Source of the DNA: a virus
Reading direction: 5' to 3' (one strand)
IMG/VR virus record: IMGVR_UViG_3300019884_000009
Span: 1-33,971 of that record
DNA: 33,971 nt
Shown here one piece after another: positions 25,919-31,785 of the stretch. A model generated the notes under the pieces. The model ran no database searches, was not told the DNA's origin, and saw only the letters and a list, made by a program, of their open reading frames with translations. Made by a program: the position numbers and the translations under genes. Each line of letters opens with the position of its first letter. The stretch's first letter is position 1.

Positions 25919-26536
25919 TCAACTGTTATTCTTAAGGTAATCGGATGGCATATTAAAGTGGGTAGCCTTGGTTATCTGTTCTTGATCTAAGATTTTATAA
26001 ACACTAGCTCTAGATAAATTTAGAATCTGTGCTGCCTTTCTAATACTAATTCCCTCAGTAGTTATCATTTTAACTGCATCACTTCTCATTGCTTTTGTTA
26101 TTTTTGAAGGTCGACCCAAATGTCTACCGGCTAACCTTGCAGCTACAATACCGTCTTTTTGCCTTGATTTAATCATCGTGCGTTCAAATTCTGCAAATGC
26201 TCCCATCATGTGAAGCATAAGATTTGACAAAGGGTCTTTCTCAGCAGTAAAAGTTAAATTCTCTTTAACAAATTTAACTGAGACTCCTTTTTCGATAAGA
26301 GAATCTATTATCTCCTGGAGGTCTCGTAAATTTCTCGCCAACCTATCAATACTTTCAACAACCAAAGTGTCACCGTCTCGTATGTATTCCATACAAGCAA
26401 TCAGGTTTTCACGGTTCTTTACGCTCCCGCTCATGATATCGACAAACTCCTTGTCTAATTTCACCCCCGCTAACTGCCTTGCGGTATTTTGTCCTTGTGA
26501 TGATACTCGTATGTAACCTACAACTTGATGCTTCAT
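25919..26536 (-). CDS. Serine recombinase (resolvase/invertase family)
   Basis: The 205-aa protein (start at the ATG giving MKHQVVGYIRVSS; the frame is open upstream but carries unrelated residues) has the N-terminal catalytic domain of small serine recombinases: R10 and S12 in YIRVSS, DRLAR (64-68) and the long E-helix (104-135). A C-terminal helix-turn-helix covers about 160-184. Relatives resolve plasmid dimers or invert tail-fibre segments (Gin/Hin). It lies beside the fibre paralogues. It starts 2 bp after the coiled-coil/TM gene, in one operon. Confidence 0.9.
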   Translation of the reverse strand: MKHQVVGYIRVSSQGQNTARQLAGVKLDKEFVDIMSGSVKNRENLIACMEYIRDGDTLVVESIDRLARNLRDLQEIIDSLIEKGVSVKFVKENLTFTAEKDPLSNLMLHMMGAFAEFERTMIKSRQKDGIVAARLAGRHLGRPSKITKAMRSDAVKMITTEGISIRKAAQILNLSRASVYKILDQEQITKATHFNMPSDYLKNNS

Positions 26537-26538
26537 AT

Positions 26539-26811
26539 TTAAAACCAATGAAATCCGTGAGCCATGAACCCAAATAATCCGACAAACCCACCTATCGTAA
26601 AAGTTAATAGCCATCTAAATTCCGATCTCATTTCTTTTCGGCTTTCTTTAATGTCTGATTTAATTTCAACAATACTTGATTTGATGTCTGATTTAATTTC
26701 GATAAGCGTCCTATCTATATTCATCATTGATTGTTCAAGCAACGCCGTTCTAGTTTCTATACTATATGGATATTGACTAACTTTATCTTCTGGTTTTTTA
26801 TTCACTTTCAT
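26539..26811 (-). CDS. Coiled-coil protein with C-terminal TM (paralogue A)
   Basis: The 90-aa protein has an ETRTALLEQS segment, a repeated heptad-like EIKSDIK stretch (about 37-60) and one C-terminal hydrophobic helix (FTIGGFVGLFGFMA) ending HGFHWF. It closely resembles the 32119-32394 protein. Tail-anchored coiled coils of the XhlA type are common in phages. It is directly upstream of the serine recombinase and shares its promoter; why they are paired is unknown. Confidence 0.7.
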   Translation of the reverse strand: MKVNKKPEDKVSQYPYSIETRTALLEQSMMNIDRTLIEIKSDIKSSIVEIKSDIKESRKEMRSEFRWLLTFTIGGFVGLFGFMAHGFHWF

Positions 26812-27615: not shown

Positions 27616-27736
27616 TTTTTATTTCCAATTTATTTATTCGGTCATTTAGTTTGCAAATATAACGGAGTTGAAATAAATGAGAAATTGACAATAATATGAT
27701 GGAGCTCTCACACAGCATGTTTGCAATATTCGTCAT
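27593..27736 (-). CDS. 47-aa microprotein coupled to the Tad2-like gene
   Basis: The ORF starts in an ATGA overlap with the tandem Tad2-like gene and ends 23 bp inside the next gene. The product has a short hydrophobic part (SSIILLSISHLF) and a coiled-coil-like end (KLNDRINKLEIKN). The coupling supports translation; no function is known. Confidence 0.5.
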   Translation of the reverse strand: MTNIANMLCESSIILLSISHLFQLRYICKLNDRINKLEIKNDGFKSW

Positions 27737-28110
27737 TCTACCGTTATCCAGTCATCAGCCAAAAAAGAATCAAAATCAGGTATATATGGGAAGCAGTCCA
27801 TTGTGTGGATAACAAGACCTCTTATTGAGGCATCAAAATAAATAAATGACTCTTTCCAGTCCTTCATCTTCGCTTTAGATCCTTTGCAAATAAATGAGAT
27901 GATATCACAGAATTTCATTTCTTCGTTGCCATTATCAACTAACCACCCATCAGATATCATTATATCTTCATTATAATTATAAGTTGATAATTTTGGCTGA
28001 TAGGATTTTACATCCTTTCCTTGCATTAAAAAGTATACGCCATCTTCCCATGGCTTTCTGGTAACTTTTGAGCCACTTTTAAGCTTATCCATTGCTTCGC
28101 AGAATTTCAT
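27733..28110 (-). CDS. Tandem Tad2-like (double DUF2829) protein
   Basis: The 125-aa protein has two halves with the same opening (MKFCEAMDKLKSGSK at residue 1 and MKFCDIISFICKGSK at about 65). Each continues to a W (RKPW, MKDW) and a YF segment, and the second half closes with FLADDWITV, the DUF2829 ending. Tad2 proteins of this family soak up the cyclic nucleotide signal of Thoeris defence as multimers; a fused pair could assemble or bind differently. Assignment is by eye. AAAGGATGG precedes the ATG, inside the upstream gene. Confidence 0.6.
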   Translation of the reverse strand: MKFCEAMDKLKSGSKVTRKPWEDGVYFLMQGKDVKSYQPKLSTYNYNEDIMISDGWLVDNGNEEMKFCDIISFICKGSKAKMKDWKESFIYFDASIRGLVIHTMDCFPYIPDFDSFLADDWITVE

Positions 28111-28405
28111 TTTTTTGTTCCATCCTTTTTTTAAATTCTTCTTCCGTTATTTCTACATTAGAGCCAAAATCACGAATATAAATGCCGCTACCACATGATT
28201 CTTTTTTATAGAAACTATTATGAAACCAATATTCAATTGCCTTCATCCAATCTGCTCGGCAATCTTTACATACGCGAAGTTGATATAACCTTCTTGTTTC
28301 ATCTAATTTAAATGGAACATCAAGCTCTCCCATATCGTAAAAACATCCCATCTCTAGGGTACGTCTGTCTTCATCTATGTCTCTGCATCTTTGGCATTCT
28401 TCCAT
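28085..28405 (-). CDS. Zinc-binding CxxC/CxxC early protein
   Basis: The 106-aa protein carries C4-x2-C7 and C46-x2-C49 (EECQRC, RVCKDCRADW) around an RRTLEMGCFYDMGEL region. I recognise this layout from small phage proteins of unknown activity. TAAGGAG lies 5 nt before the ATG. It follows the GC-rich island and overlaps the Tad2-like gene by 26 bp. Confidence 0.7.
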   Translation of the reverse strand: MEECQRCRDIDEDRRTLEMGCFYDMGELDVPFKLDETRRLYQLRVCKDCRADWMKAIEYWFHNSFYKKESCGSGIYIRDFGSNVEITEEEFKKRMEQKNEILRSNG

Positions 28406-28470
28406 TTTTACTCCTTATTAATTGGTGGGATTGGCGTGAATTTCACACGCACCTACCTCGTTACCCGCCT

Positions 28471-28617
28471 TTAAGATGCATAAGCACCACGGTCTCGCAC
28501 AATTGCAAAATGAGGCGCTCTTCGATCACGTGCGTCTTTTCGAGCTCCAGTCCCATATTTGGTGACAATCGGCTGGAGTTTCACCAGCCAGAAAAAACGG
28601 TAGGGAATCGAACCCAT
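28471..28617 (-). CDS. Possible basic ORF inside the GC-rich island
   Basis: From ATG 28617 the minus strand encodes 48 aa, including YRFFWLVKLQPIVTKY and an Arg/Asp-rich end. The frame is open further upstream to the stop of the preceding gene, so a GTG start near 28660 is possible. Codon use (CGT, CGA, GCG) differs from neighbours. It vaguely recalls small ORFs in the immunity regions of P4-like elements. It competes with the view that the island is a structured RNA. Confidence 0.3.
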   Translation of the reverse strand: MGSIPYRFFWLVKLQPIVTKYGTGARKDARDRRAPHFAIVRDRGAYAS

Positions 28618-28690
28618 CGGACGTTGACCAGCTACACCAGTCGTTTTTTCTCCAGGCCAACGGGCACGTAATGTCTGTGCAGCGATTGTC
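28560..28690 (-). ncRNA. Candidate tRNA-like structured RNA
   Basis: Read on the minus strand, a 7-bp closing stem (28684-28690 with 28564-28570) is followed by ACCA (28563-28560), as in a tRNA acceptor. Directly before its 3' arm is a 6-bp hairpin GGCTGG/CCAGCC with a 7-base loop, in the T-arm place but without a TTCGA loop. A GCAC/GTGC hairpin lies in the D-arm place (28680-28664). The centre is a perfect 10-bp stem (28590-28599/28642-28651) whose 42-base loop holds GGGTTCGATTCCC. No anticodon arm is evident. The fold is inferred by hand. Confidence 0.4.
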
Positions 28691-28691
28691 G

Positions 28692-28877
28692 TTATTCTAT
28701 ATCTTTAAGTTCATCTGATTGTTGAATTCTTATTGCGCATAATAGATTATTAATATTAATTAATAATCCCTTAGCATCTCCAGTTGTCATATCTTCACCG
28801 ATCATATACTGAATTTTATTCATATAATCTTTAGCTATTTCTATCAATTGCATGATTTGTTTTTCAGATATTTTCAT
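28692..28877 (-). CDS. Hypothetical helical early protein
   Basis: A 61-aa ORF starts in an ATGA overlap with the preceding gene. The sequence KISEKQIMQLIEIAKDYM is amphipathic and helical, and it resembles other small phage early proteins with an IxxQQSxELK end. There is no known function. It ends just before the GC-rich island. Confidence 0.65.
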   Translation of the reverse strand: MKISEKQIMQLIEIAKDYMNKIQYMIGEDMTTGDAKGLLININNLLCAIRIQQSDELKDIE

Positions 28878-31757: not shown

Positions 31758-31785
31758 ATTATATAACATGTGTTACATGTGTCAA
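31758..31785 (-). promoter_or_regulatory. Consensus early leftward promoter
   Basis: On the minus strand TTGACA (31780-31785) and TATAAT (31758-31763) match the sigma-70 consensus perfectly with a 16-bp spacer. It faces the leftward early operon. ATGTGTTA-type repeats lie in and beside it, so a repressor bound there would block it. Confidence 0.85.

What the first reader, a model, noticed from the sequence alone, without database searches (positions are those of the whole stretch)
28427..28691. GC-rich, self-complementary tRNA-like island inside the early operon
The minus strand at 28560-28690 can fold into a closed multi-arm structure: a 7-8 bp outer stem followed by ACCA, a GGCTGG/CCAGCC hairpin abutting it, a GCAC/GTGC hairpin, and a perfect 10-bp central stem whose loop carries GGGTTCGATTCCC. 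It resembles a tRNA acceptor/T-arm with abnormal T-loop and no anticodon arm, so it could be a tRNA mimic, tmRNA-like decoy or regulatory RNA. Its composition (32 of 60 bases G/C at 28441-28500) contrasts with AT-rich neighbours, suggesting recent acquisition. An overlapping 48-aa frame complicates the reading.
Basis: partly seen in the sequence, partly recalled or inferred. Interest (0 to 1): 0.75.

Follow-up and report, generated by a model that had tools for sequence, protein, structure and literature searches.

The report
Tandem tRNA-like RNAs in uncultivated phages
Between two small early genes this virus of bacteria carries two tRNA-shaped RNA genes back to back, whose decoding arm is replaced by a large variable domain; related viruses carry the same kinds of RNA in the same sort of place, and no known RNA family matches them.

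Summary
The fold is real and larger than described. The gap 28406-28691 (minus strand) holds two adjacent tRNA-like units, not one. Each belongs to a family in related uncultivated P22-like phages: class A (unit 2), 17 members, 97.4% of structure cells paired, 19 of 30 pairs changed on both sides; class B (unit 1), 16 members, 96.5%. A covariance model built without any window sequence finds unit 1 as its only hit in the window (E=4e-7). ARAGORN finds no tRNA or tmRNA gene, and no Rfam family reaches threshold. GC-richness is a family trait, not a sign of recent arrival. Most likely these are non-coding RNAs on a tRNA scaffold, cut from the early operon by tRNA-processing enzymes, with the anticodon arm replaced by a variable domain. 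A decoy or anti-defence role is plausible from the Tad2 neighbourhood but untested.

The parts
28560..28690 (-). Unit 1 (class B tRNA-like RNA), G1 at 28690 to encoded CCA at 28562-28560
   Evidence: Blind covariance model R3, built without any window sequence, finds exactly 28560-28690 at E=4.4e-7, only hit in the window; 16-member family
28683..28690 (-). Unit 1 acceptor stem, 5' strand GACAATCG
   Evidence: pairs with 28571-28564; both-sided changes in relatives; whole-stem replacement GTGCATTAG/CTAATGCAC in L158 and L170/L171
28664..28680 (-). Unit 1 D-arm (GCAC - 9-nt loop - GTGC)
   Evidence: fold; D-stem covaries in the family
28590..28651 (-). Unit 1 long arm at the anticodon position: 10-bp stem AGAAAAAACG/CGTTTTTTCT with a 42-nt loop
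   Evidence: fold; interior sequence unlike other members apart from two related pairs elsewhere in the family
28603..28615 (-). GGGTTCGATTCCC, T-arm-like sequence nested inside the unit 1 interior domain
   Evidence: sequence; weak Rfam tRNA-Sec match 15.7 bits, E=2.8
28571..28589 (-). Unit 1 T-arm GGCTGG-TGAAACT-CCAGCC
   Evidence: T-stem pairs covary
28560..28570 (-). Unit 1 acceptor 3' strand GATTGTC, A73, CCA
   Evidence: sequence
28423..28554 (-). Unit 2 (class A tRNA-like RNA), G1 at 28554 to encoded CCA at 28425-28423
   Evidence: 17-member family, 97.4% of cells paired, 19 of 30 pairs with two-sided changes
28548..28554 (-). Unit 2 acceptor stem, 5' strand GGGACTG, pairs with CAATCCC 28433-28427
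28517..28545 (-). Unit 2 D-arm: GCTC/GAGC stem with enlarged 21-nt loop holding a small hairpin
   Evidence: GTTC/GAAC compensation in L106
28455..28516 (-). Unit 2 anticodon stem GCCTC/GAGGT closing a branched domain in place of the anticodon loop (includes hairpin TTTGCA/TGCGAG)
   Evidence: helices 5 and 6; GCATC/GATGT compensation in L106
28434..28450 (-). Unit 2 T-arm GCGTG-TGAAATT-CACGC
   Evidence: helix 8; T-loop TGARANN in every member found
28692..28877 (-). Upstream gene (61 aa); one base separates its stop codon from unit 1
   Evidence: the same gene precedes class B in L131, L060 and L157
28085..28405 (-). Downstream gene (106 aa, cysteine-rich)
27733..28110 (-). Tad2-like (Thoeris anti-defence) gene in the same operon
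   Evidence: Pfam PF11195, E=9e-11
31758..31785 (-). Perfect sigma-70 consensus (TTGACA-16-TATAAT), likely promoter of the leftward early operon

Best explanation
Two tandem non-coding RNA genes, each a tRNA scaffold (acceptor stem, D-arm, T-arm, CCA end) whose anticodon arm is replaced by a large variable domain so that it cannot decode. They are transcribed inside the leftward early operon and released by the host's tRNA maturation enzymes (RNase P at the 5' end; a 3' tRNase and/or CCA-adding enzyme at the 3' end). The mature RNAs present the variable domain on a stable tRNA body. The likeliest role is a phage accessory one: occupying or misleading a host factor that recognises the tRNA elbow or acceptor end, for instance a tRNA-targeting defence. 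Shown: the conserved fold, the two families, their position and lack of coding. Inferred: processing. Speculative: the target.
For: Covariation: class A 97.4% of cells paired, 19 of 30 pairs with two-sided changes, 39-51% paired when slid; class B 96.5%, 25-46% when slid. Blind model finds unit 1. Tandem units in several phages (window, L131, L060, L133, L087, L117). Most units start 1-15 nt after a stop codon and many end just before the next ribosome-binding site. RNase P-type features: 12-13 bp acceptor/T stack, G at +1 in nearly all, a pyrimidine at -1 in every unit examined except the two with their own promoter, ACC at the 3' end of most class A units. No own promoter for nearly all, yet a class B variant in two phages has a near-perfect or perfect sigma-70 promoter placed so that transcription would start exactly at G1: the same 5' end by another route. 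RNA similarity does not track SSB similarity (rho 0.13), so the RNAs look exchangeable. Tad2 anti-defence gene nearby.
Against: No expression or processing data. CCA is not encoded in all members. A decoy role rests on neighbourhood and analogy with phage tRNAs only. Class A interiors are partly conserved, which a pure decoy might not need. The host is unknown. Several class B pairs never vary (4 of 8 acceptor pairs) and so say nothing either way.
Confidence: 0.6

Rival explanations
1. Operon punctuation: the tRNA folds are only signals that let RNase P cut the early mRNA into separate gene messages; the excised RNA itself does nothing.
For: Units fit snugly between stop codon and next ribosome-binding site and nearly all lack promoters.
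Against: Long interiors kept in part of class A (L091/L094/L143 87-97% identical over 77 nt) are not needed for cutting; many relatives in the clade lack a unit at the same junction; promoter-driven variants exist.
Confidence: 0.15
2. Cis-acting leader or riboswitch controlling the next gene (for example Tad2).
For: Units lie just upstream of Tad2 in L004 and L060, and the class A T-arm often reads GGTGAAANYCC, reminiscent of a cobalamin riboswitch element (from memory).
Against: Downstream genes differ widely: metallophosphoesterase-like, cysteine-rich protein, unknowns; no Rfam riboswitch match.
Confidence: 0.08
3. Genuine translating tRNAs with oversized D-arms and an intron or insert in the anticodon arm.
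For: L107 carries a near-complete tRNA with GUA anticodon, 5-bp anticodon stem, enlarged D-arm and the same TGAAA-type T-loop, showing that odd T-loop and D-arm can sit on a decoding tRNA.
Against: No 5-bp stem with 7-nt loop at the anticodon position in classes A or B; interiors differ in length and sequence; no intron family match in Rfam.
Confidence: 0.08
4. Decayed tRNA genes without function.
For: Some copies look broken (L102 has lost its 5' acceptor strand, L141 is short); phage tRNA genes do decay.
Against: Compensatory changes in all the modelled stems in many phages show selection on the fold.
Confidence: 0.05
5. Protein-coding: the 48-aa frame (28471-28617) is the real gene.
For: Open frame present.
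Against: The frame spans parts of both units; class A lengths of 121-189 nt and no frame open in all members.
Confidence: 0.02

Closest known systems
Phage-encoded tRNAs that counter tRNA-cleaving defences (PMC10264068; PMC11555353)
   Same: Phage genes, tRNA fold, acceptor and T-arm; proposed or shown to blunt host tRNA nucleases
   Different: Those keep a working anticodon and decode; here the anticodon arm is replaced by a large variable domain and neither ARAGORN nor the Rfam tRNA model detects them
Bacterial Y RNAs / YrlA with tRNA-like module (cited in PMC12282133; structural details from memory)
   Same: Non-coding RNA, tRNA mimicry, reported from phages too
   Different: From memory YrlA is open at the anticodon side and carries a Ro-binding stem; here the ends are at the acceptor stem. 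No Ro/TROVE gene in seven of these phages, no Rfam match
tmRNA
   Same: tRNA-like end domain with the anticodon arm replaced by a long insert
   Different: Well under half the length, no tag reading frame, no ARAGORN or Rfam match
Gammaherpesvirus tRNA-miRNA transcripts (TMERs; from memory)
   Same: Viral tRNA-like gene used as a scaffold to deliver another RNA
   Different: Eukaryotic Pol III genes with microRNA hairpins 3' of the tRNA; unrelated sequence and host

Membership tests
tRNA (decoding) | 7-bp acceptor, T-arm of 5 bp with 7-nt loop, CCA end | tested here: met
   both units, (unit 2 acceptor has one C-A mismatch); CCA encoded in the window but only in some relatives
tRNA (decoding) | 5-bp anticodon stem with 7-nt loop carrying an anticodon | tested here: not met
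   extended or branched domain instead
tRNA (decoding) | recognised by tRNA gene finders or the Rfam tRNA model | tested here: not met
   ARAGORN 0 genes in the window; no tRNA model at gathering; at E<=10 only tRNA-Sec 15.7 bits, E=2.8, on the internal stem; none in L131
tmRNA | match to tmRNA models, tag reading frame | tested here: not met
   ARAGORN and Rfam negative
Y RNA / YrlA | match to the known Y RNA families in Rfam | tested here: not met
   no such match at gathering, nor at E<=10 in the stretches tried
Y RNA / YrlA | partner Ro/Rsr protein (TROVE domain) in the phage | tested here: not met
   0 of 7 phage records; a host copy cannot be excluded
RNase P substrate | 12-13 bp acceptor/T stack, G+1, pyrimidine at -1, RCC at the 3' end | tested here: met
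   sequence features; RCC not in every member
RNase P substrate | cleavage at G1 by the enzyme | not testable with these tools
   needs an in vitro assay
Phage anti-defence tRNA/decoy | protects phage against a tRNA-targeting defence | not testable with these tools
   only neighbourhood (Tad2) and analogy

The most novel reading that the evidence does not exclude
A phage RNA system in which a constant tRNA body carries a hypervariable domain in place of the anticodon arm, exchanged between phages, acting in trans as decoys or inhibitors of host tRNA-sensing immunity: RNA counter-defence modules on a tRNA chassis.
Probability: 0.25. Interest if true: 0.85.

Novelty: new variant of a known kind. 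Interest (0 to 1): 0.62.

Why it matters
These appear to be undescribed RNA families in a group of uncultivated phages: ordinary tRNA and RNA-family searches miss them, so phage annotation overlooks them. A conserved tRNA body with a replaceable anticodon arm would be a natural counterpart of the laboratory 'tRNA scaffold', and its place next to an anti-defence gene makes a direct test of RNA-based counter-defence possible.

Tried and rejected
Direct DNA search of the island in phage and plasmid records: only a 23-base chance match in Arthrobacter phages, no plasmid match. Genome-contig pattern scan: two chance hits in unrelated DNA, so no cellular or prophage copy was found for class A. Host assignment by protein similarity failed: the Sak4-like protein has almost no match in named phages, the coat protein is about 28-29% identical to P22-like coats of several hosts, and the plasmid searches were uninformative. 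Palindromic D-loop as a dimerisation site: the first class A members looked palindromic, but L071 and the L064 type are not, so dropped. attP (integration) reading rejected: the 5' acceptor strand and D-arm covary too. Ordinary intrinsic terminator: no terminator-like site in the island. Literature search in the open-access library found no description of such phage RNAs; subscription papers are not covered.

Full report
Observation. The minus strand of 28406-28691 is the gap between two small genes of the leftward early operon (28692-28877 and 28085-28405). Energy alone would not convince (z about -1.8 per unit). Reading the ends as tRNA ends shows that the island holds two units, each ending T-arm, 3' acceptor strand, A, CCA: unit 1 at 28690-28560 and unit 2 at 28554-28423. 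Two such units never arose in 2000 mononucleotide shuffles.

Homologues of unit 2 (class A). Relatives of the phage were found through its Sak4-like gene and its single-strand binding protein in IMG/VR. Between SSB and the Tad2-like gene, several carry sequence like unit 2. DNA patterns and a covariance model (R1) brought the family to 17 members, one per phage in the records searched. RNAalifold, without guidance, returned a tRNA-like cloverleaf. On 17 sequences 97.4% of cells pair, 19 of 30 pairs show two-sided changes, and sliding the partner drops pairing to 39-51%. Six members were not used to derive the structure; L106 changes a D-stem pair (GTTC/GAAC) and an anticodon-stem pair (GCATC/GATGT) together, and in L101 the acceptor region reads TGACAG/CTGTCA instead of the usual GGGAT type. 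The T-loop is TGARANN in all, not TTCRANY.

Homologues of unit 1 (class B). The acceptor GACAATCG/CGATTGTC recurs, sometimes with small changes, in L007, L060, L131, L087, L105, L130, L133 and L142, and further in L013, L152, L153, L157, L158 and L159. Most have D-arm GCGTG-GACAGTGA-CACGC or close to it and T-loop TGCAATT. Pairing is 96.5% over 16 members and 98.3% over 13 without the window and L060. A model from those 13 (R3) finds the window's unit 1, same ends, E=4.4e-7, as its only hit. A variant in two phages has exchanged the acceptor for GTGCATTAG/CTAATGCAC. The interior is hypervariable: apart from L131/L133 and L105/L102, no class B interior matched another at E<=0.01. In the window, L131, L060 and L157 the unit follows the same small gene by 1-4 nt.

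Not coding, not recent. No forward frame is open across class A, whose lengths run from 121 to 189 nt. Element GC is 0.42-0.55 against 0.30-0.43 in flanks in the 29 loci checked; this is a property of the RNA. The RNAs do not follow SSB similarity (rho 0.13, p=0.14; identities ignore gaps, so this is indicative only), which suggests exchange between phages.

How it probably works. The one perfect sigma-70 promoter in the region lies far upstream at 31785-31758, and nearly all units lack a promoter at the right distance, so the RNAs should be cut out of the operon mRNA. They carry the features that, by established knowledge, bacterial RNase P reads: a 12-13 bp acceptor/T stack, G+1, a pyrimidine at -1, and often RCC at the 3' side. 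In two phages the class B variant has a near-perfect or perfect promoter whose start would fall exactly on G1: the same 5' end set another way. What the released RNAs do is not shown. They cannot decode as they stand. The operon carries a Tad2-like anti-defence gene, and phage tRNAs are known to blunt tRNA-targeting immunity (PMC10264068, PMC11555353); a recently described system attacks the CCA tail (PMC12851939). A decoy or inhibitor of such a factor is therefore my leading guess, at about one in four; operon punctuation is the main rival.

What it is not. ARAGORN finds no tRNA or tmRNA gene in the window or in the class A/B loci scanned. Rfam gives nothing at gathering in the window and four class A loci, and only chance-level matches, or none, at E up to 10 in the stretches tried. 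No Ro/TROVE gene occurs in seven of the phages. It resembles tmRNA and Y RNA in idea (a tRNA body with another domain) but meets neither definition.

Wider picture. Related loci hold other tRNA-like oddities, listed under things noticed. L107's element is nearly a normal tRNA with a GUA anticodon but an enlarged D-arm and the same type of T-loop, hinting that the families grew out of real tRNA genes.

Noticed in passing
L060 8527-8641 (-), L064, L133, L157: A third conserved element (class C): 5' hairpin (loop with CCTAGG in two), conserved CTGCNNGGNCGGCAGTA, and a 3' T-arm-like hairpin, but no acceptor pairing seen; in three of the four just upstream of a class A or B unit or another tRNA-like element.
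   Followed up: partly
L104 2990-3175; L064/L117 upstream of class A: A short tRNA-like element with a long anticodon arm sharing CTTTATAG-nGGAAGTnCGCAATGAnn-CTATAAAG; in L104 it is followed by a tRNA to which ARAGORN gives only a two-base anticodon.
   Followed up: partly
L107 3000-3100: Cloverleaf with intact anticodon arm (CTGTAAA loop, GUA) but an expanded D-arm and T-loop TGAAATC; missed by ARAGORN.
   Followed up: partly
L001 2721-2919, L002 6033-6231: Two tRNA genes in tandem; the first has an enlarged anticodon loop (four-base anticodon gggt by ARAGORN), the second is tRNA-Tyr.
   Followed up: no
L170 330-560; L171 200-380: Class B variant with acceptor GTGCATTAG/CTAATGCAC and its own sigma-70 promoter (perfect in L170, TATGAT -10 in L171) whose start falls on G1.
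   Followed up: yes
window 28403-28467 (-); L117 3293-3346: Weak, sub-threshold Rfam DUF2815 RNA matches (15-16 bits) at the same place in two class A elements, from the 3' part towards the next start codon; probably chance or shared ribosome-binding site.
   Followed up: no
window 25919-26614 (-): Serine recombinase (DNA invertase family) at the far end of the leftward gene block.
   Followed up: no
L102 3014-3163: Class B copy that has lost the 5' acceptor strand but keeps D-arm, interior and 3' half.
   Followed up: no
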